In this document: piece by piece, positions 1,740 to 29,510 of the stretch | Numbering within the stretch: the first letter of the stretch is position 1 | Layout of the letters: each line of letters begins with the position of its first letter | Origin: Arenicola marina | Lineage: Eukaryota; Annelida; Polychaeta; Arenicolidae | DNA: 64,000 nt | Assembly (NCBI GenBank): GCA_964019135.1 | Contig: OZ025260.1 | Location: 25,476,254 to 25,540,253, forward strand | Direction of reading: 5' to 3' | Program-made: the position numbers and the translations under genes | The notes under the pieces: model-generated | The model's database searches: none | What the model was told of the DNA's origin: nothing | What the model saw: only the letters and a program-made list of their open reading frames with translations

Positions 1740-4700
1740 ATGGATAACATCGAGCGGCCGATTCACCCAAATCCGCTGGAGGGCGCTAACTGCTTCGTTA
1801 AGGCCTGCTTTTGGTGAGTACACAAGACGCGGGCTCCTTGCATGTTCAGCGTCCCTGGTTTAGCGTGCCGAACGCTTGTTTTTTTTCGCCAAAATATCAA
1901 TAATTTATTTTTGCTGGGGTGTTCAACAACAAAATGTTCATGTGAATGTTTGCCTCACCGCACTTTTTCAGGTCGTTCGGCGAATTATAGATAAGAGAAG
2001 GTGAATTATTCCTATTCAAGAACTGAGTGGAAATGAAAGGCCACAGACAACATGCCATGATTACGCCACAATATGTTACATTACACCATTGTTGGTCCGA
2101 GGTATAATTCAATATACAAATTGGAGACGTTTGCTAACAACCGGTGATCCATTCGGTTGTTAAGTGATTACTTTAGCTTAGGGCAAAATTAGCCATGTGT
2201 TTTTCCAGGCATAAAAATCTGGTGGCCGCCTTTATATTCCTGCGCGCCTTTTCGCTGTTCGGTATTTTGTGTGTCATGTCAACCGCGGCTCGCTATCACG
2301 TCCGTGCGCGATATAAGTAAACCGCGCAGTTTTATGTTGAAATTGTTGTTTTACAGACTCTCAGAGATATAAAACGTATATGCATCATAATTTTTAAATA
2401 CCTTTAGCCTTGATTCTTAAATGCAAAAAATCTAAGATGGCGCATGTAAGTATATTGCTTTAAGGTAATACGCGCCGTAATAGGGACCTACATATTAGAT
2501 TTAATACGTCTAGCTACCTACAGGTCTAGAAGAGGGCTCGCATTGAGTGTTCTGGTCACCTGAGAGCCTAACGGCACGTGGGTCGGTGGTTCGAGCCCTG
2601 CTGTGACCATGTCTGTGTGGTCGCAGGATAAAGATCCCATGTCTTTCTTCGTAAAGAGTAGGGGGTTACCCCCGGGGACATGGCTTCACTCTCCCTTCCT
2701 TCTCCCATTGACGCGAGATGACCAAAAGTGGTTAAAGCGTCCTGAATAACCAACCAACCAACCTACAGTTTTAGACATGAGACGGCAAGCCACACACAAG
2801 TTTAGATCTGAAACTGACATACAGGTTTAGATATACTAGCGACCTACATTAATTATTTTGCAGATCTGAGACCTACAGGTTTAGATCGGAGAACTACAGG
2901 TTTAGATCGGATACCTACAGGTTTAGATCTGAGACAAAGAAAGGCAAAGCAAATCGTTAGACAATATACATTGAAGCCAAATGGCGTGCATGCCCATCGT
3001 TCGCAGTTACGTGAGAAACATTTGTCCCGACAAAACGTTAATGCGTGCAAGTCCACAGTTTTCTGGAGAAGGTCGATTAACAGTTAAACATTGAACCAAC
3101 ACGATATGTTTTTAATAGCAATATGGACCAATCGAACACGATTTACGTCGCTGAAGAGTGATGTTATATGAGTTATTTATAGTGAGTTTTTTTCAGTAGG
3201 TTCAGACGGTCTTCGCGCCAGTCGTTAGACCATCTGTTACCATGATGTATGGCGAGAAGCACCTTGACATGTCAAATGGATTCTTCAGTGACTCCCAGCT
3301 CACAGCGACCTCATGCAACTTTCTCTATCTCTCTCTCTCTCTGTCTTGGCCTCTTCTGTCTTCCTTTTTCTCTGTTGCTCATTGCTTGCTGTTATGTTTA
3401 ATTATCTGAGTCTCGGTCTGCCTATCTTTCCTGCTTTCCTCTTGGCATTCCGTGCTGTATAGGTATCGGGCTTAGTCAATTTCTCTCTAGATTCTTTCTA
3501 TTTCTCCACTTTCTCTCATTATCTCTCTCTTTCTTTTTCTTCCTTTTCTTCCTTTTTGTGTTTCTCTCTCTATGTATATGTATCATATTTGTCTTCCTTG
3601 TTAGTTCCTTTTCTCTCTGGTTAATTGTCTCTTGTTTTATTATGTAGACGTCGGCGCCTGTCAACTTCTCTTTACATACAGACTCCATCAACTTGATCCC
3701 CCTGTCACTCCCTCTACCTTTCTCTCTCTTTTTCTTTACTTGTTAGTGCTTTTTTGTCTGTCTGTGTCCGTCGTCTCCATTTCTCCTTTCTTTCTCTCCC
3801 CCTTTCCGTTTTAGCTGTGTATATATATCGAGCTCGCTCAGATTATGTCTACATAAATAACTCCCTCAACCGGCCTCTCTCTATCTCTCCCTCTCTCCCT
3901 CCCTCCCCTGTATCTCCCTCTCTCATTCTGCATGTTAGACATACGTTTGTATCGACCTCGGTAAGTCTCACCCCCGTTTTATCATCGCCATGTCATCACA
4001 TGTGTCATTGACGTTCATAACGTTATTGACACAATTTGTCAATACCATCAAAATGTTTTCTTCCCTTTGCTGAAATGATACGGCGTTAATGTCAGTGGCA
4101 AAAGATGGCTTCTTTTTTGCAGACAGCGAAAATGTACGATCGGCCCTTAAACACATTGATCTTCTGAACGGAAGTGCATTGCAATAAATTGGGGGATGGT
4201 ATATCGAATATCTAGGGTACGCCTTTCATAGCTTTTACTTCTACTTAAAAAATACATTGATCTCCTGAATGAAAGTGCATTGCGATAAATTGGGAGATGG
4301 TATAATATCTAGGGTACGCTTTTTATGGATTTTACTTTTACTTAAAACATACAACTACACCTGGCGCATAATCGATTTAAGAATTCAGCCCGTATTTTTC
4401 GCACTTTTTCGCATCTCTTTCTGCACGAAAAGCTGGCCTATTATAGAGCTCATAAGGCCGATTAACGTGCATAGGTATACCCGGCACATGAGGATCATTC
4501 GGACAATCAACGACGATTCTAACAACTCCTGTTTCTGATTCTACAATTGACCATATAGTTCTTGTATAAGTACATTTGTATAATAATGTATAATTATGGT
4601 ACCCATCCCAGCTGTGGCACTTACCCGTGTCGCTTTAACACCACCGTGTCAGTCCCTGTCTAATTGGTACTATGTTGTGTGGAATTTTGTAATTCTGCAT

Positions 4701-7700
4701 TCATCTACTAAATCCAATCCTATGATTTACGGGACCTCGTGCCCTCTCTGGAATTGGTCAGTAAGCCTAATCCACTGCCTAAATGTTACGGTTAGTATGT
4801 TCGACATGACGAAGATCACCCTCAGGCGAAATACAGAATGCAAGGCCAACATGCCCATTGCGCACATGTTTTTCACGTCAAATATGCTGTCTGCAATGTC
4901 TTGAGGGCGGCTGTGTAGCAATTTGTGAACACGTGTTTCGCTGAAGCAAGTTTAAGACCCCGGCTGGAGCTGGTAACGGCCATCGCCTTGGCAGCTGTTG
5001 CTGTGTCCCCGCAGGTGAAATATGTTGGCGCTAATGACGAAGACAGCCACTGATTGGCAGCAGCCACCTATAACCTGTATAACAAGAAATTGATCAAGGC
5101 ATCTGGGCCCATCAGTCATTTTTTACACCATAATGAATGACCGCGCCCTCCATAAGTGGAGACTTCAATTGCGGAGGAATTCGCGTTTAGTACGTTGCGA
5201 AGTGGCGAGTTTTCTGCTAACATAGTTAGGCCATTCAACGTGATACTGAGTGCCGCGTGGGTTTCCTTACCCTACATACTGGTAAAGCAAACCGGGCGAT
5301 GACTATAGTAAGGAACATATTGAAGTCACAATGCCTGGAATACTTCAGAGGATGTGGATATAAGAAGGAATATAAAGTGTCATCAGATCTTGCGCAGGAA
5401 TCTAGCAAGCTGTTTGTCTTCAATGGGATGTCACGATCGCTTTGTTTTTATACTGGAGGTCCCGGCGTCAACAATGTGATAAGGATTACATCAATGCTGT
5501 GTCTATAGAGTTAACCTTCGATTCGGGTTCTCGTGTGTGGTTAGTCAGCAGTGATCGCACTCCATTGTATGTTCTTGCCACGGATAAGGCGACAGAGTAC
5601 CACCCAATATCGGACACATCAATGTGGCGATATAACGGATATCGTCTTCTCTGCATAGACTAAGGTAGCTTGATAAATATTTCAAGGTCTCCAAATGTCA
5701 CGTGTTTTGTGGCCGCAGTAATGTAAATCGCCTTGTAAACCGCCCTGGGTTTTTATTTTGCGAGAGTTAAACTTCACCGATGGATATATTTCGCAAATTG
5801 GCCAAAGTCCGCGAATCTTGGACGACTCCGAGAGGTACCGATAGATGTCAGCACTGCAGAGTGACATGTCAGTGTAGTTCAAAGCGGTGGAGCCACCTGG
5901 TGTGAGTATTTGGTAACAACTCTTAACATATGATGCATAATTTGTGGTTTTTGTGTCTTCCATGTGAAGCGATGAACATGCGATGAACGTTCATTAAGCC
6001 TGTCGCTGGATCAATCTCTGTGGAATTTAAAGCTTGACTATCATCACCTGGACAACTTTACGAATTTATTCAGTAGCCGTATTGAATATAAATATATAAG
6101 TTTATCCTTGGCCCGGTCGAGCGGATACGTGCATACTTTTTGACATGAACGGTACCAGTTCCACACTTGTTATGATCTTAAGATCCGACATGTCACCCAC
6201 GTCAGCCATTATAACAAGGCCGAATCAGCACCACTAATCCTTCAACCCAGGTGGGGCCGCCCCGATAGCTCAGTGGGCTTGAGCGCTCGCATCGAGTGCT
6301 CTGGTCACCTGAGAGTCTAACGGCACCTGGGTCGGTGGTTCGGGCCCCGCTGTGGCCATGTCTATGTCGTTGCAGGATAACTCATATCCATGTTCGCAAA
6401 GAGTAGGGGTTGTCCCCGGGGACATGGCTCCACTCTCCCTTCCTTCTCCCATTGACGCAATATGGCCAAACCTCTTTAAAAGTGTCCTGAATGTTACACT
6501 GTATAAATGTCTCTATGGGAGGTTGTAATGATGCTGTGAATTACACTCTATAAATGTCAGTATGAGAGGTTGAAAGGATGTTGTGAGTTACACTGTATAA
6601 ATGTCGGTATGAGAGGTTGTAATGATGCAGTGAATTACACTCTATAAATGTCGGTATGAGAGGTTGTAATGCCGTTATGAGTTACGCTGTATAAAGATCA
6701 CTATGAGATGTTGTAATGATGCTGTGAGTTGCACTGTATAAATGTCAGTATGAGAGGTTGAAATGACGTTGTGAGTTACACTGTATAAATGTCGGTATGA
6801 GAGGTTGTAATGATGCAGTGAATTACACTGTATAAATGTCAGTATTAGAGGTTGTTATGATGTTGTGAGTCAGACGTGAGCTACACGGTATAAAGGCCGC
6901 TACGAGAGGTTGTAATGATGCAGTGAGCTACACGGTATAAAGGCCGCTACGAGAGGTTGTAATGATGCAGTGAGCTACACGGTATAAAGGCTGCTATGAG
7001 ATGTTGTAATGATGCAGTGAGCTACACGGTATAAAGGCCGCTACGAGAGGTTGTAATGATGCAGTGAGCTACACGGTATAAAGGCTGCTATGAGATGTTG
7101 TAATGATGCAGTGAGCTACACGGTATAAAGGCTGCTATGAGATGTTGTAATGATGCAGTGAGCTACACGGTATAAAGACCGCTACAAGAGGTTGTAATGA
7201 TGCAGTGAGCTACACGGTATAAAGGCCGCTACGAGATGTTGTAATGATGCAGTGAGCTACACGGTATAAAGGCCGCTACGAGAGGTTGTAATGATGCAGT
7301 GAGCTACACGGTATAAAGGCCGCTACGAGAGGTTGTAATGATGCAGTGAGCTACACGGTATAAAGGCCGCTACGAGAGGTTGTAATGATGCAGTAAGCTA
7401 CATGGTATAAAGGCCGCTACGGGAGGTTGTAATGATGCAGTGAGCTACACGGTATAAAGGCCGCTACGAGAGGTTGTAATGATACAGTGAGCTACACGGT
7501 ATAAAGGCTGCTATGAGATGTTGTAATGATGCAGTGAGCTACACGGTATAAAGACCGCTACAAGAGGTTGTAATGATGCAGTGAGCTACACGGTATAAAG
7601 GCCGCTACGAGATGTTGTAATGATGCAGTGAGCTACACGGTATAAAGGCCGCTACGGGAGGTTGTAATGATGCAGTGAGCTACACGGTATAAAGGCCGCT

Positions 7701-15300: not shown

Positions 15301-18300
15301 GGATGTCCAGGGTATCCAGTCTGTACTCCTTCCCCACACCCACTCCTCTTGTCTGCGCGGATTAAGGTTCGTCTTCATGTTTGCAAGGCTTTATGTTATA
15401 TACAACCTCGAATCTCGATCCCACCCCCGTCCCCCTCCTTTTGCTAGATGTATCGCCATATCACAGTCCATTATGTAACAGACATATATGTAAATTTACT
15501 TATGTTTCGGTCATATAAATACGCACACTTATCATATAGTATTTGCGTTATATGAATACCCGTATTTACGCCTGCCAAATAGTTCCCAATCATATGACGT
15601 TCATTTACGCAGTTAATGAGTTAATCATAATCACTATGTTTATAAGATTGTTATTTTTATCCCACTTCGAACTGACTTAATATCCTTACAAATACAGGTC
15701 AGAATGTTCCTTGCTGCGAACTTTGACCCACATTCGGGGTCTGAACTCGGCCATGTACTTCGTGTCGGGCAAACTGCTCATGTTCGTCACATTTGCTGCG
15801 TTCCTGCTGGTGGGGGGTCAGGGGTCAGTGAGCATGCTCTTCACGACTCTGGTCCTGTATGAGATCCTCAGAGCCAGTGTCAGCCTCCTGTTGCCATGGG
15901 GGGTGCAACACTTCCTAGAGGCAAGGGCCGCAGTCGACAGAATTCAGGTAGGCTGTTGGTTGCACAGGGTAAATTTGGCCAAGGCCAAGGCCTTATGTAG
16001 GTGAATTGCACTGCTAGATTTCCCTTACTTTCCATTATTTCGTTCCATAGATGGACATTTGTTATATCTTTCCTGTAAGTTGAAGAGTCGGCAGTTTCTA
16101 ATGTAATCGTACGTCATTATGTACCCGTGCAGGTTTTTATTTACACAAACATGCGTATTTGTGCGTGATGGGGGTGGGGGGGGGGGCACCAGCTTATTTT
16201 GGTCTGTGACTACGATTGTTTATGCTATCGCTGGTTAACATTTAAACTGTATTTTTTGTCTACGCACAATCATTCGACTGTGGATTTGTTTTTGGCGCGA
16301 CATTCCGGGTAACACCTAGGCTGGCGCCGACGAGTTAGTACCAGTTAGTTTATCATGTATCTTTTGGTAAATAAATACGCGATTGATTGTCAAAGGCCAA
16401 AAACCCCTGCATTGTATTATTCAGGAATAATTCACTGTGTTCACAGGCCTTTCTGCTACTGGAGGAGAAATCCCTGATGGACGCACACGCCAATGACTTC
16501 GGTGGACCCAACAATCTGGTCAAGCGTTCTCCGCTGCCTGAAAACGTCGTTGTTCGCCTGGAGGACTACACCACAGCCTGGAGAAAGGTGAGGCTCATAG
16601 CCTTCGAACCGCCGTCGCGTTGTAATGCGTAATGTTTTGTAGATCTGCCAGTGCGTACTAAATCGTGTCTATAAAAGCGGGTTTCTGAGTTGCTGCACAC
16701 GCCCACCGAATGAACACGTAATGGCGGTTCTACGGTACTCAGGTGGCCGGCCTCTCGGGGACTGCAACTGCACACCGCATGAACACGCAACGGCGGTTCT
16801 ACGGTAAGCGTAGGTGTAGTCTAGGTTTGGCGGTTCTACGGCAGTCCAGGTCTGGAGGCTTAAACAATACAGGTTCAAATAATATCAAGGGAAGCTTCCA
16901 CGGAAGATAACACGGGTATACATTAAGATGGGAATTCAATAAAACTTAAATGTCGTTCGATAACTATATTGTCCCTTTCAATTCCAGGATGAGACTTCCT
17001 TCATCCTGGAAGGGCTAAATCTCACGGTACTGAAGGTAAGGATGCTAGCCCTTCATAAGCTGTTTATGTAAAGACTGGTTTATTAAGGAAGATAAACCTT
17101 ATGTGGCTTGAGAGAAGACATTCATTCGAATACTCTGAAGCCTAAAGTCAATGTAACAGTTGTTTGATATTGGTTTTAAGCCTTTATCATATAAGTCAAT
17201 TAACTAGTATGACTGACGGCGTAATAACCTTTCTGTCGTCTTCCAGGGGCAGTTCCTTGCCATCACTGGTTCACCGAGAAGCGGCAAGGTAATATGCTTT
17301 GTTTTTTTTTTATGAGGGGGCCTCCTTGTAGATCAGTAGGTCGGGGCTTCGAATCTGGGCCCGGGCACCTAATCTGGAACATGTTTCATTCATGCGTCCT
17401 TTGTCGTCCTAGGCGGTTCTTTGGCCTAATGCGTGCACATTAGCGGCACACAACACCAATCCATCTCGGTGACACCAAAGTGTTATGTCCGCTGATTCTG
17501 CAGTAGCCGCATTCCTCGTTGGCGAAGTGATATTTGGAGTTAATATTGCAATGATATCAGAATTTAGCTATACTAGAGATTAATACATTATTTGACTAAA
17601 TTTAAACATATCTTGTCAAACTCGTATATTGCAATTCTCCACATCAGGTGATATACATTCTCTCATCGTCTCCATGAAGTCGATTCATGTCATTCATAAC
17701 ATTCATAACATCAGGCAATTAGTGATAAAATATGACTGAGTGGTAGAACACTTGATTGCCTGGTTCAAAACCGCGGTTCTGGTTGGTCTAGTCTGGGGGA
17801 TATATAATCGAAATTATTTAATGCCCCCGGAAGGTTTCTTGGCCTAATTTATCCCCTCGTGTGCACGCTAAAATATGCCTATAAAAAATAATGTATTGTT
17901 TCTTTCTGTGCGCAGTCGACGCTGCTTCTGGCTATGACGGGAGAGCTTCCGCGTCTCGGTGGGTTTCTGAGGACCCGCGGTAAGCTGGGTCTGGTCCCCG
18001 AGTCTCCCTGGCTGCTGCCTGGCACCGTCCGGGATAACATCGTCTTCGGCGCCGATGTCGACAAGCGTCGCTACCACAGGGTCATACAGGCGTGCGGCCT
18101 GCTTCCGGTACGTTGTCATAGTTACCGCATGGGGCGGCATAGTTACGTCATGGACCGTACGGCGTAGTTACGTCATGGGACGTACGGCATAGTTACATCA
18201 CCAGACGTACCTCTATTTAAATGGGCATTATATGGTTATGCCATACTTGGGTCGCGATACTTCAATCATAAGGCAATACAATATATATTATACACCTGTT

Positions 18301-21300
18301 TTCTGGTGTTAATAATGCCCACGGGAACATATATATATATATGTTGTCAGCGTCGGGGTCTGTTGGCATAACATAACGTTTACACAACACAACGGCATTA
18401 AGGATAAGTAACTAAGTAAGGATGCCGTATCAAATTGCAAAATGTAAAACTCTTATAGTTATGTGATCTGGGTCTTCTCATAGGACTTGGAGGCCTTACC
18501 GGCTGGAGACCTGACAGTCCTGGGAGAGAAGGAGACACCGCTCACTAACGCAGTGAGGGTCAAATTAAGCCTGGCCAGGTGTGTGACAACCCTTTGATCT
18601 GTTACTGTTGAAATAGGACACAAGAACTGCAACTACTGTCCCGAGCCGGCTGCCCTGTTATTCTCAACTTTCCAGGGAGCATTTTGGGATGCAAAATGCA
18701 CTTCGTCTTTGCTGCAGATATCACCGTGGTACCCCTAGTGAAAGAATCCCACACCACCCACCTGGTGCCGTCCTGTGTCGGATCGCTTAACCCCTTCAAA
18801 GATTAAATCTTCATTACGATGCTGCCGCAGACAGTTTATTGCTATAGAATATGGCATTTTCAATATCTTAATAAAGCAATATGTTAAGAAAAGTGAATTT
18901 TGGTTACTTAATTCATGTCCTAAGAGAATAGAAGAGATTAAGGTCATATTACAGCGCTTTGAATTACCCAATTTGTTTTCCTACAGAGCGGTCTACCAAG
19001 GGGCCGACACATTTCTCGTGGACGATATACTCAGCCAGATGGGTGGTGAAGAGGCTCTGCATATCTTCAAAAGGTAAGTGCAGATATGATAATGACTCAA
19101 AGTGGTCACAACGAGTTTATAGTTTGGTGGTTGTATATTCAGGACGCATTAACCATTTTGGTCATATCGTGTCAATGGGAGAATGAAGGGAGAGTGGAGC
19201 CATGTCCCCGGGAGGAGGGGAGGGGGGTGGGTGGGTAACCCCCTACTCGTTTCAAAGAAGGACATAGCATCTTTATCCTGTCACTCAGACATGTCCACAG
19301 CGGGGCGCGAACCATCGACGAGTTTATGGACAAAAGGCGTATGGAATATAAGTGTATTCAAAACATTTTTAACCACCTTCAATTTGTAAAGAAGATGATT
19401 TAATTCTGTATTTGGACGTTTGGTTTTGTACTTTGGCTGGCGGTAATGGTAACAGAGAATAATGGAACCGATAACCATCACCAATAACCTCCATTTGCCG
19501 TCATGTTCTAGGTGTTTCTGTGGAATCCTCAATGCAAAGACTGTCATCCTGGTCACACAGTCACGACAGTTCCTCAAGGTGGCAGATCAAATTGTCGTCA
19601 TGGAAAAGGTATTTCTTCGTCTTTGTCTTTATAAGTATGATATTATACACATTCATAATACTAAGACAATGACAGTAGAAGAATATGCCATATCATTATG
19701 AGTTGATGGTCGCATTAACTACATCTGCAGCTTGATGTCGGGCCAATAAATTGCTTAACTCCCCGCTATTATATTAAACATCTTGGACAGCAAATATACG
19801 ACGTAGAGCTGCACATGATAACATCGAATATACAAATTAATTTATGTCTTCAGGGCAAACTGCAGCACAGTGGCTCTTATAACGATCTTGTCAACAAAGG
19901 AGTCACCTTGGGAGACAACGATTCTGAAGAGGAACGTCAGTGTCATGACAACGATAGTTGCAATGACTATCATCAAAATTGTGGTCAAGAAACTACTGCC
20001 AATGACAGCCAGGATACTACACTGAAGTCGACAAAGACTATTAGCCAATCAGGGACCGTGACCCGCAACCGCACGGGAGTAGATTCCACATACGGATCAT
20101 CTGAATCTCTGGATCAACTGTGGATGGAGCTAAACTCTGTAAGATAGCAAGCAATCAACGAGACGGAGGTTAAAACCATATCATGTTTGTATTATATAAC
20201 TCGACTAGTCAGTCACCCCAAGGATCCGAGTCCTTATTCTTGAAACTATATCGTTCGCGATATCGTAGATCCAGATTTTACGTAGATTTCTTGGTCATCT
20301 GCCTGCATAGTCTACGAACTCATGCATTGTTCGTGAATACGTGCTTGGGACAAAGGAATATTTCCTTGGGTCTAACAAATATCTGACTTATAATATTTTC
20401 CTTCAAGGATGACCAGGTTTATTTTCTGGCATTAATCACAGATGCCGCAAAAACCAGTCAATTCCTTCATCATATAGCACCGCATACGCGCGGGTTCTAC
20501 GGAATTCGATACCGGAATTAACATTCGATGATACCCAATTATACGCTACTGTACCCTTCTAACAAAGGACATTGTTATTGGCGCAGGAAACCAGTGAATC
20601 AGATCAGAACGCGGATGAAGACAGGGAGCCCACCGTGGTGGCCAGCCGGACATACCGGGACTACATTCACATTGGCGGATATAACATAAGCTTCGTCGTC
20701 TTAATCGTGCTCTGTATTGTTACACAGGTATGGCCTACCAACAAGTAATTAACTGGTTATTAACTATTAATTAACATGTAATTAATTTATATGTGTCATA
20801 TTTTCTTTTGTGCCATATTATACCAGGCCACTGTAATATCATGCTTTCATTATGGATCTGAAATCTTTTGTTTTTATGTACCGTGTACTGTAGCATTATT
20901 ATGTATTGTATCCGTCTAATATGAGTGCTTAGACCATAAACTGCGTTTTTTTATAGTGTGTTGAATATGAGCGAAGTTAGGTAAACATCGCCCGGTTCGC
21001 TATTTCCGGTTTGGGCCTCGCTTTTTAAAGGAAAACAAAACTTATACCAGGACAAACTGAATGCTGTTGAACACCTTTCACGCTGCAGATTTAATTTACA
21101 TTACATGGGTTGAATGGTAATTCTCCACTTTGCCACAGCATGTTGAAATGATGCTGACATTTTCATAATGTTGATATATTTTAAGGTTTTTACAGACGAA
21201 ATTAAGTTTTTCATTTCAAAAAAGAGGGAGGAGGCAGGGGGATAGGGTGCTAATGTTACCTCTCATGACGTTGCTATTGTTTTTTGTTTAAGGTCGCCTA

Positions 21301-24300
21301 TGTCATGTGTGACTGGTTCCTGTTTCAATGGTGAGTGCCTCAGCTGTCACCACGAGGATCACTACGGGTTTAGTAACGTAGTGAACACTAATAACGAAAC
21401 GAATAGCGATTAAATATTGACTGCGTATCGGGAAGATTACCCGTCATGATACTACCAGTTCGACCTCTCTGAGTAACATTATTATAGCGAACCTGTTCAC
21501 AGCGCAATTACCAGGGGCGGATCCAAGGGGGGAGGGGGTCCCCCCGTTTTGAGAAAGAATGCCGCTTTTTTAATGCTAAATTTAGGCCATCTGAGGTGTG
21601 GATCTCCCCTCCCCCCCCACCCCAGTCGCAATTTAGTTCGGAGCGCCGTCCCTCCCGGTCGCAAGTTTCAGTGGACCCCCTCCACCCTTTTCAAATTCCT
21701 GGATCCGCCCCTGAATACAGCACCTTGATTGCCATGCACTGGCTAACTCTGTGGATATTTATTTCTCACGTTTAGGGCTCAAGCACAGTATGTAGCAGAA
21801 AATCCAATCGCCATCACGACCTCACCATTCTTCACATCCGTGCCACACGAGTCCTCACCATCGCCGGAAGATACGAACGCCACCATCGCTACCGCTACTC
21901 CAATCAATGCCTCATCACCGCCAGTAGGATTAACTACCTCATCCGCAATAAACGTAGATCCGGCGCCCACGTGGCCATGGCTGCTTCCGGCGGGCGGCCA
22001 GGTGGCGCTCCCGCTGGAGGCGTTCGAGGTGTACCTCGGGGTCTTCATGGGGTTGCTGCTGGCCGCCGTGCTGCGGGCCCTGTTGGTCAGCGTGGTGGCC
22101 TGCCGGGCCGCCCAGCGGCTCCACAACCACGCCTTCAAGGCAGTGCTCAGGGCGCCTGTGGCCTTCTTTCAACGCTACTCCCTAGGTAAGTCGGCCACAC
22201 GATATATAGGTTAACCCGCTCGTGTCATGGCTGATTCCCGGGGGGGAGGGAGGGGGGGCACTGTTATATAAATCTAGTGGCGGGGGGGGGGGGGGTCCGC
22301 GGGTGCCTCTTGATGCCTGAGGGAGCTGATATATGTGATGAGAAAGACACCCCATGGAGCGGATATTTTACAACTTGCGACAGGGGGTGGGGGGGAGGCT
22401 CTGAAAATGTGCTTTCATAGAGCAGGTTGCCGCGAAAATATACCCCCCTACGAGCGGTTTTTGGCGGCAAAGCGCCCCAATTTTGGCGGTGAAAATGGGG
22501 GGGTTTACCGCGGACCCCCCCCCCCAAACTCAGCATCAGTTACAACATGTGCTTTATTATGATAACTCACATATTATTCATGATTTTATTCATATAACAT
22601 GAACGGTTTATTTCGTACTATAGGCTGGCATCCGCCCATGTATATACGATCGCCGTAAACTTTGCTATTGCTGGAATGATGGACATCAAGGCATTATTTT
22701 TTTCGTGTTGAGAGGAACCAATCTTTCATGCGCAGTTCTTTACTCGCGGCGCAATTGCTGCACTAATGAGAGCTTGCTAAAATTTGATACGGTTGATGTA
22801 TAAACACATAGATTGGGTGCGTAAGCGGGAAGTTTCTTTCAATATGTTACCCAGTCTGCCCCAGGTGTTTCTCACCTGGGCCAACTCGAGCCCAGGAAGC
22901 GCCAGATGATAATCATGTGAGGTTAATATGCGAGGTAGAAGTTTCGGACAAAGTATCGGAAAATCCTCCCTCCAGTCCCTAGCATAGACTCATATCCTGC
23001 CCAACATGATCTGGTAGGGGTCTGGAAGGGGTAAATGGCGACACGCCAGTCAGGCATATTTGAAAAATCGACCTCCAAATTCCGACACTGAGGTTCTGAA
23101 AAAGCGACATCGACACCGATTTTGAAGAATAAAACGACACTGAACCAAAAGTGACACGAAAAATCAGTTATGAAAAATCGACATTCGACACTGAGAATTT
23201 TCAGAAAATCGGCACTGGACACTGGACCCTTCTAATATTCTCTCTCGACTTGGCATGTCAGGTCGGGACGGAGTGCACAGTTTGATGTTGCGTTCTCACG
23301 CGTATAGAGGCGCCACGTGTCTCTTCAGGTCGTATCCTCAGCCGCTTCACACGTGACGTTGGTTACCTTGACGACCCACTTCCTGCCTGCTTCTTTGAAT
23401 GCGTCCAGGTAACTTCAGAGCTATTATGGTATTTTATGTTATTAATAGTAACAGTAGTAATTGCTGTAATAATAGAGAATTGAAAATTAACTTTTTCATA
23501 TCTGTCGCACTTTTTGTATTCCCACCAATTAAGACTTTTCTGGAATTCATCCACGTAGCTTCAGCTTTTAGTTACCATTGTTTTATATTAGAAACCGTAA
23601 CAATGTTAGTTACAGTAATAACAATATGTATTACTTAATTATTATCATATATGTTTGAAGTCATATTTATCGTACTGATCACAATATATTAAAACATTAT
23701 CCAATGCCATGGATAATTTGGCAAAACACCACGCCGGTTTGATATAATGACATTTGCTACTGCTCCGTTTTGTAAAATGAATGAACGAACTGATGAATTA
23801 GTCATTTCCGCTTTTTCTCTCTCTCCTTGCCTGATCCAGTTTCTGTTTATGGTGTTCGGGGCCTTCGTAACCGCTGCCGTGACGTGCTACTGGCTGGTTC
23901 TGGTCATCGTCCCGGTGGTTCTGCTCTTCTTCCTGGGGCGTCACTACTACATGAGGACCGCCCGCGACGTGGGGCGACTGGAGAACACGGGTAAGGGGGG
24001 AGGCTATTATAACAATTATAATAATAATACAAATAATTATGGCAGTTATACGAAAAATAACAATAATAATTAATGTACAAATTATGGAAATAATTTAATA
24101 ATTATGACAATAATCTAATAATTATGGCAATAATCGGATAACTATGGCAATAATCTAATAATTATGACAGTAATCTAATAATTAATAATAATAATGTAAT
24201 AAGTATGTTAATTACAATATTGATAATAATAATTGTAATAGTTATAATTATAATAATTATAATTATAATAATAATACTTATAATTATAATAATAATACTT

Positions 24301-27300
24301 ATAATTATAATAATAATACTTATAATTATTATAATAATACTTTTCATGATTCCAATAATAATTACTATAGTTATACTGATAATTATTATAATTCTAATGA
24401 TAATTATTATAATTCTAATGATAATTATTATAATTATAATGACAATTATTATAATGATAATTATTATAATTATAATGATAATTATTATAATTATAATGAT
24501 AACGATCATAATTATAAGAATAAATATTTGAGGGACCCTATCATTGCAGCCAAGGTGCCTATCTACCAGCACATGACCCACACCCTGGAGGGGATGTGGG
24601 TGGTGCGCAGTGTGGGTGCCCAGGGCCGCTTCCTGCGCCGATACGACATCCTTCAGGACCGCCACACTGCCGCCAGCTACATGTACCTGGCCATCGGACG
24701 CTGGTTCGCCCTGCGATTGGACGTCGTCAGCATCTGTTACGTCACGCTGCTGCCAATCGTCGCCATTGTCGTAAAAGAAGGTGAGAGATTCACAACGTCG
24801 GCAGGGGTGGGGGGGGGGGGGGTTCATTGTCGTTAGAGACGGCGAGAGAAAAACTGTTAATCATCGTTGAGGGTGGTTTGTGGTTTCAATTTGATTGAGG
24901 TTTTATGCATCGGTTGGTTTGCGGCTGGGGAGTTTAGGTGAAATTCCTGCCGTTATTTTGTCACTTGGGAGTTAGGGGGAAGCCTCTGGCGTTGGTTTGT
25001 TGCTGGGGAGTTTGGGGGAATCCCCTGCCCCTTCGTTTGTCCATGGGGAGTTTAGGTGAAAACGCCCGCGGTGAGTTTCTCCTTCGGACGTTTGGTTAAA
25101 TATTCGGCAATTAGTTATAGGAATGAGAAGGTCCAGTTAATTTATATTGCAGTTAAAAAGTTGGAAATGGGGTGTTTACATAAATGACCATCCAAATTGC
25201 GGTTGACTGAGCCATAAGTCGCCAATGGAAATTATACTACTCCAACAAGAATATGACGCTAAATCACAACATTGACAAAAGTTGACGCAATGTAACGCAA
25301 GATGGCGCCATGTGTCACCGGGTTTTTTCCCTTTTAGATATAAATCCGGGATTGCTGGGCATTTCAATGGCGTACGCCGTCAACTTGATTGGCTTGTTCC
25401 AGTTCTCCATGCGGCAGTCAGCAGAACTAGAAAACCAGGTGAGTAAGACTTGTGTTGGCGCAGTTATATATAACAAAATAAAAGGCCATCGGTGGGGAGG
25501 GGACGGGGGGATGGGTATTATTACATTTAAAGTCAAAATCATATTTTATTTAGCGTAACTCTCGATACATGCAAAGAAGTCAGAGCATGACTATCTCAGT
25601 CATGCTTATGTTATGTATAACGAGAAAACTGGAAAGTATCTAATGGCACATATATCCGTCTTTGAATAGATGGCAGGTGTGGAAAGACTTTCAAAGTTCG
25701 CGGACCTGACGACAGAGGGCGACCTTGTGACGTCACAAAGACCTTCCACCACGTGGCCGCAGTATGGCATTGTGACATTTGAAGGCGTTACCATGACTAC
25801 GGATGAGAGGACCCGGTTATTACGCAATATTTGGTGCTGTATTCGGGCTGAGGAGAAGGTAAGATGTACACCATGATCATGACTATCATAGAAATAAATA
25901 CCTAAGGTACGCTTCCAATAGCACTACACCTGAGAGCCTAACAGCAAGTGGATCGATGGTTTGCGTCCCGCTTTGGCAATGTCTGTGTGGTCGCAGGATC
26001 AAGATCCCATGTCTTTCTTCGCAAAGAGTAGGGGGTTACCCCCGGGGACATGGCTCCACTCTCCCTGCCTTCTCCCATTGACGTGAAATGACCAAAAGTG
26101 GTTAAGGCGTCCTGAATATACAACCAATAGCACTAGGCAAACATTTATAAATATGCTGAAAACAGAGAATCCTTTTAATGTTGCATGTGGAGTTGTTTCG
26201 CTGTTTTTGAATGTCAAATTTGCGTATAAGAACACAAACCTAAGGCCTTAAGGTTCATAACAGACAATAAACACCTACCATATCGCTCACCAATTATCTG
26301 CCAATGAGCAAAACATTTCAAATTCATGAATTGTCCGCCATAAAAATGAAAACTTGTGCTGATTTGAAACGTCATAAACGTGTGTACACAAGTCGTTTAC
26401 CGGTGCCACCGACAGGGGCGCCCAAGCGCTAAATTATATGAGACATTAGAAGCGTCTGGAGCGCCACTTTGTCTTTGGCGGTGGCCGTTGACACTGCTTG
26501 TGGTCAAAGGTAACATTTCCTGTTTATGTTTGTTTTGGTACAGCAGGTGCAACGGTCAGCTCCACATGTAACTTTAAGCTAGCAGAACTGGGAAACTTTA
26601 TCTACCAAGCGAAAAAAAATCTCAGCAATCTTTTTTTGACAAAGCTGTCCTCATAATTAGGTTAATTGTGTTAATATCATAATATGTATATATGTTGTAC
26701 TATGGGCCAAAGTAAAATGAAGCCCAACCACTAAAAGTAGTTTAATTGGATGTGCGTATGTGTTAAATGATATTCGTTATGTGACGTCATAGAAATTGCG
26801 TGGTATTGATTTAATTTTTATACAAAAGTGCTAAGTATACATATTCCTCTTGAGTTGAACGCATTAACAGCTTTCTATGGTCCTTTCTGTTTATAGGTCG
26901 GTATTTTAGGGAACCCCGACAGCAGTTCAAAGGCATTCGTTTCCGCCATTTTGAGACTAAAGTCCTTGACTTCCGGCACGGTGCGTATCGATGGTCTTGA
27001 CATCGGCCAGCTGGGGCTCCATGACCTTCGGGAACGTGTAGCCGTTGTAACGCAGGCAAGTCAATATTGAAACTCATCCTCGCTAAATCCCCCATGCCAA
27101 TGGGATCTAGTCCATCATTCTATCCGGTAAGAAATATTGCATATGGCTGAATTGAGAGACGGTATAATTGTTTTACTTGAATTGCCGTCCTTTATAGACC
27201 ACGCTGAATGCAAGATTTGTCAAGAAGTGCCGATACATTTTGAAATTCCTGCATTTTCATCTTGTCGACTGTTTCCGTTTTTGTATTGAGCAAACACCTA

Positions 27301-29510
27301 TATAAATGTCAATTATAGCTGTTTATGTCTCAAAGGGTGTGTGCTGTTTCTTTCCCCTTGATTGAATATAGCGTGTAATTGTTTCGCGGGCTAAGCGATA
27401 GTTCTTGAGTTTCGCTGTCATACAACAATCATTGTACGTGCAGTATATTACGACAATTGTGATTTCTTACTAACCGATCACCATTTACATAATATATGTG
27501 CTTGAGTTGACGACCATAAACAAGAAATGATTATTTTACGAAAATAAATGCGTCCATTTTGCTTTCTCGCCACGTTCTTTAATTGGTCTTTTCTTACTTG
27601 CCATAGGACCCTATGTTATTTAGCGGAAGCCTGCGCCGGAACCTGGATCCGTTTACCCGTTACCCGGACAACGCTCTCTGGAAGGTCCTGGAGGAGGTTC
27701 AGCTTCGTGCTAAGGTGGAGCAGCTGCCGGGCAAGCTGTATGCCGACATGACGGACTTCGGCGTCAACTTCAGCCAGGGGGAGCGGCAACTGCTGGGCCT
27801 CGCTCGCGCCCTCGTCACCAATGCCAAGGTCATTCTGCTGGAAGAAGCCGCTTCGCTTCTCGAAAGCCGGTAATTAGCACTTCTATCGTCAGTAAATATC
27901 AGGGTTTCCATGGCTTAATTGTATTTATCATCGTCTTATATATGTCAGTTGAAATTTTATTTTAACGGTAAACATATATCATATATACATATGTAACAGT
28001 AAACATATATCATATATACATATTTAATAGTAAACATATATCATATATATATATTTAGCAGTAAACATATATCATATATATATATTTAACAGTAAACATA
28101 TACACACATTTAACAGTACATGCATACATATAAATATTTAACAGTTCATATATACATATTTAAAAGTACATATATGCATATTTAAAAGTACATTTATGCA
28201 TATGCATATTTAACAATACATATATGCATATGCATATTTAACAATACATATATGCATATGCATATTTAACAGTACATATATAAATATACATATTTGCCAG
28301 TACACACAGGTATATGCATATTTAACACTACATATATAATTACGAATAGCTCTATTACTTACCACACGCTAGTATCATTCCCGTAAGCATTCACGTTTCA
28401 CTCGGTTTTCTTAAGCAAATGGAGCGGGAATAAAATGGCGGCAGGAAGTCCGCCCGCCCCGCGCAGTGGCGCATGGGATTCGACAATCTAATAAATGAAA
28501 TCCAAATAAAATTAAAATTTTATCGAATGACTAATTACAGAAAACGTATGACATCCCCGACAACAAACGTATTGCACAAGTTCCAATGCATCAAATGACG
28601 CGATGGCCTTCTGTTTGTCCTCCCCCCCCCCACCCCCCTCCCCTCCCAGAACCGAAGCCAGCATACGCCACGTGCTCAGGGCGAAGTTCCCTCATAAGAC
28701 GGTGATTGTGATTGGCCAGAGACTCGGCACTGTCATCGAGATGGACCGCGTCATGGTGAGCATAGTCACATGGTACAGAGCGGGATCATGTGACCACTCA
28801 ACATTAAGTGACCAGCCTCATAGGCTTGAACTGATATTCGACGTCGTTTATCATGTATCAGATCCTGTATTATAAAACAAATGGGCGTACACGTACAGAA
28901 CGGAGGCGGGAGATGTCTTTTGTGGTTGTACACGGTCACATATGTGTTAATAATTTATATGTCAACATCCGCATATGTCGATTTTTATTGCCTGTTGGAA
29001 ATCGCGTGTCCTTGAAGCATCTGTTTCCCCTAACAGTTATTTAAAAATTCTCCGACCGCCGTCTGCGATATTCACAAAGCTGTTTTAAGGCCATAATCAT
29101 ATGCAGAAATATGTCATGTTGGGCGTAACCTTAATTGTATGGGCAGCCGTTCTAGTCTTATTTCCACGGTTTACGAGACCTCATCCTGTTTTTTTTGTTT
29201 TTTGCAGATCGTGGGAGAGGGTCGCATTAAAGAGTTCGACTCCCCCCACGAATTACTCAGCAACACGAGCGGTAATTTCTACAAGATGGTCCAGGACCAA
29301 TCCGTCGCCCAGACAGCCCGCCTGGTCAAACTGGCCCGAGACAAGCAGGAGAACCGACCGTACCGGCCTCCGCCCAAGTCCATGGGCGGGGAGGGGATGC
29401 CCTACGCTGGCCGGGCCACGAGGCATTTCCTCCCCTCCTTTCAGACCAGTAGACTGACTGGGGTGCTCAGCAATTTCACCGGCAACCGATTCTCCACCAA
29501 CAGATTTTAG
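1740..29510 (+). CDS. ABCC4-like: ABCC4/MRP4-like ABC transporter, 28 exons, degenerate ATP sites
   Basis: Complete gene for a full ABC transporter of subfamily C (TMD1-NBD1-TMD2-NBD2, no extra N-terminal membrane domain). The 28 exons sum to 4314 nt, an uninterrupted frame of 1437 residues plus stop, against about 1325 for human MRP4. The start at 1740 lies in a good context (ACCATGG), and its first residues (PNPLEGAN) match the MRP4 N-terminus (PNPLQDAN). MRP4-type proteins export organic anions and cyclic nucleotides across the plasma membrane. Here the ATP sites are badly altered: NBD1 LSGGQ reads LTNAV, the NBD2 Walker A lysine position is Ser, both H-loop histidines are Gln, and the NBD1 Q-loop residue is Glu. 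Membrane regions and splice sites are intact, so this looks like a maintained gene and not a decayed copy. Family assignment is firm; active transport by it is doubtful. Confidence 0.93.
2220..2464. repeat. Dispersed repeat of about 245 bp, copy 1
   Basis: Shares long blocks with 55029-55271, including GGTGGCC, GGCTATCACGTCC-type and AAAAAATCTAAGATGGCGCA segments. No open frame. In intron 1 of the ABCC4-like gene. Confidence 0.8.
2533..2762 (+). mobile_element. tRNA-derived SINE (family A), 5' truncated
   Basis: Body with B-box-like GGTTCGAGCCC, then GGATAAAGATCCCATGTC, a CCCCGGGGACATGG block and a 3' tail of CCAA repeats. The tRNA-like A-box head is mostly missing. It lies in intron 1 of the ABCC4-like gene. 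Confidence 0.85.
3300..3960. repeat. Pyrimidine-rich low-complexity tract
   Basis: About 650 bp of mostly C and T on the + strand with (TCTC)n runs, in intron 1 of the ABCC4-like gene. Short frames read here are low-complexity artefacts. Confidence 0.7.
4151..4355. repeat. Tandem duplication of about 102 bp
   Basis: Two adjacent copies of a stretch beginning ACATTGATCTCCTGAA and containing ATCTAGGGTACGC, in intron 1 of the ABCC4-like gene; they differ at several positions. Confidence 0.8.
6249..6497 (+). mobile_element. tRNA-derived SINE (family A), nearly full length
   Basis: The head GCCCCGATAGCTCAGTGGG holds an A-box and GGTTCGGGCCC a B-box, followed by the family body. Its 3' end runs straight into the 47-bp minisatellite, suggesting the array arose at the element's edge. 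Confidence 0.88.
6490..9272. repeat. 47-bp minisatellite, about 59 copies, TATAAA in nearly every unit
   Basis: Each unit carries GTTGTAATGATGCAGTGAGC, ACACGGTATAAAGGCC and GCTACGAGAG. The first eight or so units (to about 6885) are strongly diverged; the rest are nearly identical and differ at marked positions (GAGAG, GGGAG, TGAGAT). Most units hold a TATAAA(A/G/T) motif. It lies in intron 1 of the ABCC4-like gene and begins at the tail of a SINE. Confidence 0.95.
10766..11193. mobile_element. MITE with inverted repeats GGGCGTGTTCGATTTAC
   Basis: The left end GGGCGTGTTCGATTTAC matches the reverse complement of the right end with one mismatch, and the inverted repeats continue inward through AAACCGGTTT palindromes. 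Flanks CTAATTTA and TTGATTTA agree at six of eight positions. About 428 bp, no coding capacity; superfamily not certain (hAT- or Harbinger-like). Confidence 0.75.
12501..16587 (+). CDS. ABCC4-like: ABCC4-like exons 4-9 (TMD1)
   Basis: Exons 12501-12716, 13286-13375, 13880-14049, 14872-14997, 15698-15947 and 16447-16587 (residues 102-432). They encode the first membrane domain. Recognisable MRP4 blocks include LIYRK, then LLRLS, NIVSLLSSDTHRFDQ (human QIVNLLSNDVNKFDQ), EIIAGIKTLKVHCWEKAF (human EVITGIRIIKMYAWEKSF) and RAAVDRIQ. Exon 6 has a short upstream splice acceptor context, but the number of residues before the conserved Trp equals the human number, which fixes the boundary. Introns carry two short inverted-repeat elements (13465-13700 and 15058-15293). 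Confidence 0.92.
13465..13700. mobile_element. GTCGA-rich short inverted-repeat element, copy 1
   Basis: Ends GGGGTCTGG and CCAGACCTCT. The interior is built of reiterated GTCGATTTTTCA-like motifs. Related copies at 23017-23232 and 56379-56600. It lies in intron 5 of the ABCC4-like gene. Confidence 0.7.
15058..15293. mobile_element. MITE of the CAGGGGCGGATCC family, copy 1
   Basis: Right end TTTCTGGATCCGCCCCTG and interior AATGTAGGCCATCTGAGGCG, shared with the copies at 21512 and 41697. The left end is degraded. In intron 7 of the ABCC4-like gene. Confidence 0.7.
16660..16865. repeat. Dispersed repeat with GGCGGTTCTACGG motif
   Basis: Contains reiterated ATGGCGGTTCTACGGTACTC and CAGGTGGCCGGCCTC blocks. 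A related copy lies at about 45755-45970 in intron 2 of the second LRRC74-like gene. No recognised element class. Confidence 0.55.
16988..20138 (+). CDS. ABCC4-like: ABCC4-like exons 10-16 (NBD1 and linker), degenerate
   Basis: Exons 16988-17035, 17247-17288, 17916-18107, 18484-18578, 18987-19073, 19512-19608 and 19854-20138 (residues 433-714). Walker A at 456-463 is GSPRSGKS: lysine kept, one glycine changed to Arg. The Q-loop (human VSQQPW) reads VPESPW, with Glu at 491. The signature LSGGQ is LTNAV at 546-550. Walker B is FLVDD (567-571), kept; the following D-loop SAVD reads SQMG. The H-loop His is Gln 603 (VTQSRQ). Nucleotide binding by the Walker A/B pair may persist, but the signature that would complete the opposite site is lost. 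Exon 16 encodes a long polar, Asn/Asp/Ser-rich linker without recognisable domains. Confidence 0.92.
17316..17485 (+). mobile_element. tRNA-derived SINE (family B)
   Basis: tRNA-like head GATCAGTAGGTCGGGGCTTC with TTCGAATCTGGGCCCGGGC, then CATGTTTCATTCATGCGTCC and a GGCCTAATGCGTGCAC tail. Related pieces occur at 17735-17870, 54109-54195 (minus) and 63845-63985. It lies in intron 11 of the ABCC4-like gene. Confidence 0.65.
17735..17870 (+). mobile_element. SINE family B fragment, degraded
   Basis: Degraded head (GGTAGAACACTTGATTGCC, GGTTCAAAACC) and the family tail TTCTTGGCCTAATTTATCCC followed by CTCGTGTGCACGC, just before exon 12 of the ABCC4-like gene. Confidence 0.5.
19126..19322 (-). mobile_element. 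tRNA-derived SINE (family A), minus orientation
   Basis: Reverse-complement copy in intron 14 of the ABCC4-like gene: the tail side (ATATTCAGGACGC) comes first, then CCATGTCCCCGGG and the degraded B-box side. It has an internal G-rich expansion and lacks the tRNA head. Confidence 0.8.
20587..25438 (+). CDS. ABCC4-like: ABCC4-like exons 17-23 (TMD2)
   Basis: Exons 20587-20727, 21293-21330, 21776-22185, 23329-23408, 23840-23990, 24550-24780 and 25338-25438 (residues 715-1098). MRP4 landmarks: VAYVMCDWFLF, LHNHAFKAVLRAPVAFF, GRILSRFTRDVGYLDD, TARDVGRLE, GRWFALRLD and MRQSAELENQ. Exon 19 is long (410 nt) because the extracellular loop between its two helices is expanded to about 80 residues rich in Ser, Thr, Pro and Ala, with possible N-glycosylation sites at Asn808 and Asn818. 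Intron 21, between exons 21 and 22, is almost wholly an AT-rich array. Confidence 0.92.
21512..21713. mobile_element. MITE of the CAGGGGCGGATCC family, copy 2
   Basis: Both ends are preserved: CAGGGGCGGATCC at the left and GGATCCGCCCCTG at the right. The interior is G/C-run rich with AATTTAGGCCATCTGAGGTG. hAT elements often start CAGGG, but I see no exact 8-bp target duplication. In intron 18 of the ABCC4-like gene. Confidence 0.8.
23017..23232. mobile_element. GTCGA-rich short inverted-repeat element, copy 2
   Basis: Opposite orientation to copy 1: TAGGGGTCTGGAAGGGGTAA at the left and CTGGACCCTTCTA at the right, with TGAAAAATCGACAT reiterated inside. TA flanks both ends. It lies in intron 19 of the ABCC4-like gene. 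Confidence 0.7.
24000..24535. repeat. AT-rich array of ATAATT-type units
   Basis: Starts within 15 bp of the exon 21 donor of the ABCC4-like gene and fills intron 21 to just before exon 22. Composed of AATAATTATAAT-like units with local tandem duplications. Long Ile-rich frames on both strands are artefacts of composition. Confidence 0.9.
25670..29510 (+). CDS. ABCC4-like: ABCC4-like exons 24-28 (NBD2 and C-terminus), degenerate
   Basis: Exons 25670-25858, 26897-27055, 27607-27869, 28650-28755 and 29208-29510 (residues 1099-1437). The A-loop tyrosine position (human NFMYSPG) reads TMTTDER. The Walker A region at 1166-1174 is GNPDSSSKA, with Ser at the lysine position and Lys one place later. 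The Q-loop Gln 1214 is kept (VVTQDPMLF). The signature is FSQGE (1269-1273) where MRP4 has FSVGQ. Walker B is VILLEE (1289-1294), Asp changed to Glu. The H-loop is IGQRL (Gln 1325 for His). The C-terminal tail is Arg/Pro-rich, ends STNRF and lacks the PDZ-binding end of human MRP4. Intron 25 starts with GC. Confidence 0.92.
25928..26128 (+). mobile_element. tRNA-derived SINE (family A), 5' truncated
   Basis: Copy in intron 24 of the ABCC4-like gene, starting at ACCTGAGAGCC and ending in a tail TGAATATACAACCAA. The B-box is degraded. Confidence 0.83.
27960..28340. repeat. AT-rich tandem repeat (CATATATACATATTTAACAGT units)
   Basis: About a dozen irregular units of 25-35 bp in intron 26 of the ABCC4-like gene, decaying toward the right end. 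Confidence 0.85.

What the first reader, a model, noticed from the sequence alone, without database searches (positions are those of the whole stretch)
1740..29510. ABCC4-like protein with an intact gene but dismantled ATP sites
All 28 exons join into one 1437-codon frame with good splice sites, yet the second composite site lacks its Walker A lysine (Ser1172), NBD1 signature (LTNAV for LSGGQ), NBD2 A-loop Tyr and H-loop His. The first site keeps Walker A and B of NBD1 but has Glu at the Q-loop, Gln at the H-loop and a weak FSQGE signature. In ABCC proteins the second site normally does the hydrolysis, so this could be a pseudo-transporter: a regulator, channel-like protein or ATP sensor. Membrane domains and coupling regions remain well matched to MRP4, which argues against plain decay.
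Basis: partly seen in the sequence, partly recalled or inferred. Interest (0 to 1): 0.85.

Follow-up and report, generated by a model that had tools for sequence, protein, structure and literature searches.

The report
ABCC4-type transporter gene with dead ATPase
A worm's only detectable gene of the MRP4 drug-pump type still reads as an intact protein but has lost most of the parts needed to burn ATP, so it probably no longer pumps and may have been kept for another job.

Summary
Twenty-eight exons at 1740-29510 join into one 1437-codon frame; 26 introns are GT-AG and one GC-AG. The closest solved protein is MRP4/ABCC4 (967 bits; CFTR 658, MRP1 617). Against human MRP4, composite ATP site 2 keeps 3 of 15 canonical residues and site 1 keeps 9 of 14. 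No alternative exon with canonical motifs was found. New here: four searches found no second ABCC4-type gene in the 867-Mb, probably annelid genome, although they recovered this gene's own exons. Eleven other ABCC loci examined have canonical NBD1 signatures. Long neutral decay is unlikely: no stop, against about 17-28 expected for comparable drift, and NBD GC3 of 0.66-0.68 against intron GC of 0.39. Most likely it is a selected, non-hydrolysing ABCC4 relative, binding ATP at most at site 1 and keeping MRP4's Arg/Gln anion-pocket residues: a regulator or ligand sensor rather than a pump. Orthologues, dN/dS and transcripts could not be tested.

The parts
1740..29510 (+). Whole coding span: 28 exons, 1437 codons: 1740-1813, 11944-12054, 12221-12338, 12501-12716, 13286-13375, 13880-14049, 14872-14997, 15698-15947, 16447-16587, 16988-17035, 17247-17288, 17916-18107, 18484-18578, 18987-19073, 19512-19608, 19854-20138, 20587-20727, 21293-21330, 21776-22185, 23329-23408, 23840-23990, 24550-24780, 25338-25438, 25670-25858, 26897-27055, 27607-27869, 28650-28755, 29208-29510
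   Evidence: Spliced and translated; closest to MRP4; two ABC_membrane and two ABC_tran domains
17247..17288 (+). Exon 11: NBD1 Walker A GSPRSGK (Lys462 kept; one Gly is Arg459); Ser463 opens exon 12 (site 1)
18000..18002 (+). NBD1 Q-loop residue: Glu491 instead of Gln
18541..18555 (+). NBD1 signature LTNAV instead of LSGGQ (site 2)
19021..19026 (+). NBD1 Walker B Asp570-Asp571, kept
19558..19560 (+). NBD1 H-loop residue: Gln603 instead of His
21810..22004 (+). Residues 786-850 of the loop after TM7: Ser/Thr/Pro-rich (46%), part of an insertion of about 60 residues relative to MRP4; sequons at Asn808 and Asn818
   Evidence: loop lengths from the alignments
24699..24701 (+). Arg1038, equivalent of MRP4 pocket Arg946
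   Evidence: residue named in PMC11948813 (passages)
25400..25414 (+). Gln1086, Phe1087 and Arg1090, equivalents of MRP4 pocket Gln994, Trp995 and Arg998
   Evidence: residues named in PMC11948813 and PMC10202912 (passages)
25796..25798 (+). NBD2 A-loop residue: Thr1141 instead of Tyr (site 2)
26909..26932 (+). NBD2 Walker A residues 1166-1173 GNPDSSSK: Ser1172 at the Lys position (site 2)
27056..27057 (+). GC splice donor of intron 25 (CAG|GCAAGT), the only one of 27 that is not GT
27769..27783 (+). NBD2 signature FSQGE (site 1): Ser and second Gly kept
27841..27846 (+). NBD2 Walker B: Glu1293 instead of Asp, catalytic Glu1294 kept (site 2)
28717..28719 (+). NBD2 H-loop residue: Gln1325 instead of His (site 2)

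Best explanation
A protein-coding, selected ABCC4-type gene whose product no longer hydrolyses ATP at the consensus site. Shown: an intact frame; loss of nearly all site-2 chemistry; partial retention of site 1 (NBD1 A-loop, Walker A Lys and Walker B, NBD2 signature Ser and Gly); no second ABCC4-type gene found; Arg946, Gln994 and Arg998 of the MRP4 anion pocket kept. Inferred: site 2 cannot bind and cleave ATP, so an export cycle cannot be reset and the protein is not an active pump. ATP, if bound, sits at site 1 as a long-lived structural ligand, and the membrane part binds an organic anion. The protein then acts as a ligand- and nucleotide-responsive regulator or sensor, working like SUR rather than like MRP4. 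The partner is unknown.
For: 28-exon intact frame. Site 2 keeps 3 of 15 and site 1 keeps 9 of 14 canonical residues. No canonical alternative exon in 64 kb. Neutral simulation gives 6.6 stops at 5% and 16.7-28.4 at 15-30% substitution, observed 0; NBD GC3 0.66 and 0.68 against intron GC 0.394. NBDs nearly gap-free against MRP4. Replacements at formerly invariant NBD columns are more conservative than neutral: 13 of 28 against 5.9-7.8 expected, P 0.0014-0.014. Pocket Arg946, Gln994 and Arg998 kept, Trp995 to Phe. No second ABCC4-type gene.
Against: No orthologue, transcript or dN/dS. TMD1 and NBD2 are fast-evolving compared with an MRP1-like gene of the same genome. NBD losses also hit residues that do not touch nucleotide. 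Q-loop, H-loop and one Walker A Gly of site 1 are changed too. The linker has GC3 0.456, near intron level. The conservative-replacement test is not significant for NBD1 alone. Six of 14 pocket residues identical is close to the TMD average. A regulator partner is pure inference.
Confidence: 0.5

Rival explanations
1. Gene in early decay: function was lost recently, or the gene is barely constrained, and stops and frameshifts have not yet appeared.
For: The whole protein is fast-evolving (34-44% identity to MRP4); both NBDs lost many invariant residues, catalytic or not.
Against: So many losses would need substitution levels at which simulations always gave stops: 0 of 60 runs stop-free at 5% and above. 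NBD GC3 is unrelaxed, all splice sites are usable, NBDs are nearly gap-free. A very recent loss after an earlier change of function cannot be excluded.
Confidence: 0.17
2. A passive or gated anion pathway, convergent with CFTR: ATP at site 1 holds the half-dimer and solute moves downhill.
For: Descent from the MRP4/CFTR side of the family (second-best match CFTR, 658 bits); anion-pocket Arg946, Gln994 and Arg998 equivalents kept.
Against: No pore signature was tested. Site 2, whose ATP opens CFTR (recalled), is the dead one here. CFTR's NBD1 signature is canonical (recalled), this one is not.
Confidence: 0.16
3. Still an ATP-driven transporter that works with poor ATP sites, for example by ATP binding at site 1 and the residual catalytic Glu1294.
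For: Glu1294, Q-loop Gln1214 and the site 1 Walker motifs remain; pocket partly kept.
Against: The site 2 Walker A Lys, A-loop Tyr, H-loop His and the whole opposing signature are gone; in MRP4 the single change E1202Q already lowers ATPase and abolishes its stimulation by PGE1 (PMC10202912, passages).
Confidence: 0.07
4. Artefact: wrong exon choice, assembly error, or mutually exclusive canonical exons that were overlooked.
For: No reads or RNA available; one GC donor.
Against: The motif exons align through the motifs without gaps (printed motif pairs); a tblastn of MRP4 and a six-frame motif scan of the 64 kb found no canonical alternative; many in-frame changes on nine exons.
Confidence: 0.03

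Closest known systems
ABCC4 / MRP4 (human, PDB 8bjf)
   Same: Best match over the full length (967 bits): lasso, TMD1-NBD1-linker-TMD2-NBD2, no TMD0; Arg946, Gln994 and Arg998 of the substrate pocket kept
   Different: Consensus ATP site dead (3 of 15 residues kept); loop after TM7 about 60 residues longer; C-terminus STNRF without the PDZ motif ETAL (motif recalled)
CFTR (ABCC7)
   Same: Second-best match (658 bits); an ABCC protein that left pumping (recalled)
   Different: CFTR keeps the hydrolytic site and a canonical NBD1 signature (recalled); here both are lost. No R domain: the linker is short as in MRP4
SUR1/SUR2 (ABCC8/9)
   Same: Precedent for a non-pumping, nucleotide-sensing ABCC subunit (recalled); about 450 bits
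   Different: No TMD0; SUR keeps a working NBD2 (recalled). A separate SUR-like locus lies at C11:33.43 Mb
ABCC5 / MRP5
   Same: NBD2 alone scores marginally higher to ABCC5 (243.5 bits) than to MRP4 (239.5)
   Different: The whole protein, NBD1 and the TMD2-NBD2 half are nearer MRP4; an ABCC5-like locus exists at C7:4.85 Mb

Membership tests
ABCC4/MRP4 subfamily (by descent) | Nearer to MRP4 than to other ABCC proteins over the full length | tested here: met
   967 bits against 658 CFTR, 617 MRP1, 568 ABCC5; NBD1 211.6 against 189.8 for ABCC2. NBD2 alone is a tie with ABCC5. No tree was built.
ABCC4/MRP4 subfamily (by descent) | Lasso plus two TMD-NBD halves, no TMD0 | tested here: met
   Alignment to MRP4 starts at residue 6 of both; two ABC_membrane and two ABC_tran domains
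Working ABCC exporter | Intact consensus ATP site (NBD2 Walker A/B, H-loop and NBD1 LSGGQ) | tested here: not met
   3 of 15 residues kept
Working ABCC exporter | ATP-dependent transport | not testable with these tools
   Needs expression
CFTR-type channel | Closest to CFTR, with R domain and canonical NBD1 signature | tested here: not met
   CFTR second by 310 bits; signature LTNAV
SUR-type regulator | TMD0 at the N-terminus and closest match to SUR | tested here: not met
   Protein starts at the lasso; SUR about 450 bits
SUR-type regulator | Assembles with a partner such as Kir6 | not testable with these tools
   No interaction data
Pseudogene | Stops, frameshifts or broken splice sites | tested here: not met
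   None in 1437 codons; 26 GT-AG and one GC-AG intron
Pseudogene | dN/dS near 1, no transcript | not testable with these tools
   No animal relatives or RNA in the collections; no second copy seen in the genome searches

The most novel reading that the evidence does not exclude
In this worm lineage the sole ABCC4-type gene was converted, independently of CFTR and SUR, into a non-hydrolysing membrane protein that keeps an anion pocket and one ATP-holding site: a further case of an ABCC pump turned into a sensor, regulator or passive anion path, and to my knowledge the first in which ATP hydrolysis itself was dispensed with.
Probability: 0.35. Interest if true: 0.85.

Novelty: new variant of a known kind. 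Interest (0 to 1): 0.62.

Why it matters
ABC pumps are thought to need at least one hydrolytic site; CFTR and SUR left pumping yet kept theirs (recalled). A full-length ABCC protein kept by selection without a hydrolytic site would be a natural test of what the ABC fold can do by ATP binding alone. It would also mean that an animal lives without a canonical MRP4, a vertebrate exporter of cyclic nucleotides and prostanoids.

Tried and rejected
Close paralogue for dN/dS: the best hit outside the window (C5:49.404 Mb, 51% over part of NBD2) was fetched and looks ABCC10-like, too distant to use. No haplotig or second copy at high identity appeared. Mutually exclusive canonical exons: none found. 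Eukaryotic contamination in viral contigs as a source of orthologues: four pattern matches, none a relative. Genome contigs was not scanned, because it holds bacteria and archaea. A first NBD1 column count, was out of register by one residue and dropped the C11 locus; it was redone with 12 sequences and the wrong counts were discarded. One search ended with a script error after its tables had printed (only the last alignment was lost).

Literature, all from an open-access library: annelid with ABC transporter and ABCC4 (one insect paper, listing only); Capitella teleta with ABCC (none); phrases for doubly degenerate or pseudo ABC transporters (none; one ABCD4 paper, listing only); ABCC4 and CFTR evolution (seven papers, listing only, titles on arthropods, fish and pharmacology); degenerate ABCC sites (twelve papers, listing only); earthworm with MRP (ten papers, listing only, no annelid ABC inventory by title). 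'Not in print' rests on these searches alone. Two MRP4 structure papers were seen in passages (PMC10202912; PMC11948813); the rest of the listing was not opened.

Full report
What is there. Reading the region and joining 28 exons gives 4314 nt, 1437 codons and one terminal stop. Of 27 introns 26 are GT-AG; intron 25 is GC-AG with the donor CAG|GCAAGT. An in-frame stop lies upstream at 1677. Pfam finds two ABC_membrane and two ABC_tran stretches. The best solved homologue is MRP4/ABCC4 at 967 bits, followed by CFTR 658, MRP1 617, ABCC2 583, ABCC5 568 and SUR about 450. NBD1 alone also prefers MRP4 (211.6 bits against 189.8 for ABCC2). NBD2 alone is a tie between ABCC5 and MRP4 (243.5 and 239.5). 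No tree was built.

Where it is. The genome has 867 Mb in 762 contigs. Contig C762 is mitochondrial: COX1 needs TGA as Trp, and the order nad3, nad2, cox1, cox2, atp8, cox3 can be read in L072 (gene identities other than COX1 are my reading). cox3 directly after atp8 is the annelid pattern (recalled), so I take the animal to be an annelid; the species is unknown.

Motifs. Mapped onto human MRP4 (tallied), site 1 (NBD1 A-loop, Walker A, Q-loop, Walker B, H-loop with NBD2 signature and D-loop) keeps 9 of 14 residues. Lost there: a Walker A Gly (Arg459), the Q-loop Gln (Glu491), the H-loop His (Gln603), the signature Gln (Glu1273) and the D-loop Asp (Glu1300). Site 2 keeps 3 of 15: one Walker A Gly, Q-loop Gln1214 and catalytic Glu1294. 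Lost there: the A-loop Tyr, the Walker A Lys and three other Walker A residues, the Walker B Asp, the H-loop His, Ser-Gly-Gly-Gln of the NBD1 signature and the NBD1 D-loop Asp. The asymmetry has Fisher P = 0.025, with motif lists that I made after seeing the sequence.

Not an annotation slip. A tblastn of MRP4 and a six-frame motif scan over the 64 kb found no canonical alternative exon for either NBD. The same genome encodes canonical NBDs elsewhere. In 11 other ABCC loci (8 MRP1-like, 1 ABCC5-like, 1 SUR-like, 1 ABCC10-like; subfamily labels are my reading except for one MRP1-like gene checked) plus human MRP4, 21 columns from the NBD1 signature to the D-loop region are invariant; the window gene keeps 9 of 21. 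In the 8 MRP1-like loci plus MRP4 and MRP1, 32 columns from the NBD2 signature to just past the H-loop are invariant; the window gene keeps 16 of 32. In that NBD2 stretch the MRP1-like loci are 65-74% identical to human MRP4, while the MRP4-type window gene is 39%.

The only gene of its type that could be found. Searches of the genome with the window protein's two halves and with both halves of human MRP4 returned, besides the window gene, loci that I read as MRP1-, ABCC5-, ABCC10- and SUR-like and, some weak hits to other ABC genes that I did not classify. The two human-MRP4 searches did recover exons of the window gene at 29-45% identity, so a canonical MRP4 should have surfaced. Limits: only the best candidates are scored, and the assembly may be incomplete.

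Selection. Without a related genome dN/dS could not be measured, so I used indirect tests. (1) Neutral mutation of this CDS gives on average 6.6 stops at 5% substitution and 16.7-28.4 at 15-30%; at 5% and above none of 60 runs per level was stop-free; observed 0. (2) GC3 is 0.66 in NBD1 and 0.68 in NBD2, like the TMDs (0.70, 0.72), against intron GC 0.394; the linker is lower, 0.456. (3) Against MRP4, one of 217 NBD1 and one of 255 NBD2 positions is unaligned, and the spans compared differ in length by at most one residue in the NBDs. (4) At the 28 formerly invariant columns that changed, 13 replacements are conservative by BLOSUM62, against 5.9-7.8 expected under neutral mutation, P 0.0014-0.014 over six settings. 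NBD2 carries the signal (9 of 16, P 0.003-0.016); NBD1 alone is not significant (4 of 12, P 0.14-0.37). Together these make long neutral decay unlikely, but they cannot exclude a very recent loss.

The TMDs are not specially preserved: N-terminal part plus TMD1 36.5%, NBD1 42.1%, TMD2 39.5%, NBD2 39.0% identical to MRP4. On partial spans the window gene gives TMD1 34%, TMD2 41%, NBD2 39% against MRP4, while a canonical MRP1-like gene of this genome gives TMD1 64%, TMD2 41%, NBD2 73% against MRP1. So NBD2 and TMD1 look accelerated and TMD2 is at the control level; this is one control gene of another subfamily. Coupling regions are mixed: 23/48, 14/40, 24/42 and 21/54 identical for ICL1-4. Losses in the NBDs are not confined to nucleotide contacts: by my count of the listed columns, 3 of 7 nucleotide-contact and 13 of 25 other invariant columns are kept in NBD2, and 2 of 7 and 7 of 14 in NBD1.

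Substrate pocket. Residues named for human MRP4 in PMC10202912 and PMC11948813 (passages seen) map as follows (Gln994 by position from the alignment). Identical, 6 of 14: F156, L367, R946, G991, Q994, R998. Similar: F324Y, F368L, M990I, M992L, W995F. Different: H152D, F211G, L363A. Six of 14 is close to the TMD average, but the charged and polar trio R946, Q994, R998 is complete; in MRP4, mutations of these and of W995 had the largest effect on methotrexate transport (passage).

Mechanism. Shown: loss of most of the hydrolytic site and partial survival of site 1. From the literature passages: ATP occupies both sites in the ATP-bound form of MRP4, and changing the catalytic Glu lowers ATPase and abolishes its stimulation by PGE1 (PMC10202912). 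Inferred: site 2 cannot bind and cleave ATP, so the cycle cannot be reset; ATP, if bound, stays at site 1. I commit to a ligand- and nucleotide-responsive regulator or sensor as the most likely role, with a passive or CFTR-like path as the main functional rival. Nothing here identifies a partner or a pore.

Extra features. The loop after TM7 is about 60 residues longer than in MRP4 (79 against 19 residues between the aligned blocks) and is Ser/Thr/Pro-rich (46% over 786-850) with sequons at Asn808 and Asn818. The C-terminus ends STNRF.

Verdict. It is a known kind (ABCC) in a new variant (no canonical hydrolytic site).

Noticed in passing
6495-9273: 47-bp minisatellite of about 59 copies (94% matches) inside intron 1 of the gene; a 26-bp array (1072-1492, about 16 copies) lies just upstream.
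   Followed up: no
2531-2763, 6247-6495, 25930-26125: Three similar SINE-like stretches (shared 'ggataaagatcccatgtctttcttcg...cccccggggacatggctccactctccc' wording) in introns of the gene; seen by eye only.
   Followed up: no
34803-35897: 364-codon minus-strand ORF made of a 12-residue repeat; it coincides with a 36-bp tandem array (34807-35792, about 27 copies), so probably a repeat artefact.
   Followed up: partly
24010-24523: AT-rich 21-bp array in intron 21, next to exon 22 (24550), open in frame on both strands as poly-Ile-like ORFs.
   Followed up: no
39128-39439 and 51950-52276: Two exon-like ORFs with similar wording and EF-hand-like ends (EF-hand_6, E 5.5e-5 and 6.5e-5, both just below Pfam's cut-off): perhaps a neighbouring EF-hand gene.
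   Followed up: partly
G000 C4, C5, C7, C11, C12, C13, C17, C18: The genome seems to hold eight MRP1-like ABCC loci but only one ABCC4-type gene: an uneven ABCC inventory, labels by eye.
   Followed up: partly
G000:C325:9154-9594 (L001): The highest ABC_tran score of the genome lies in an open frame on a 16.8-kb contig, perhaps a bacterial contaminant.
   Followed up: no
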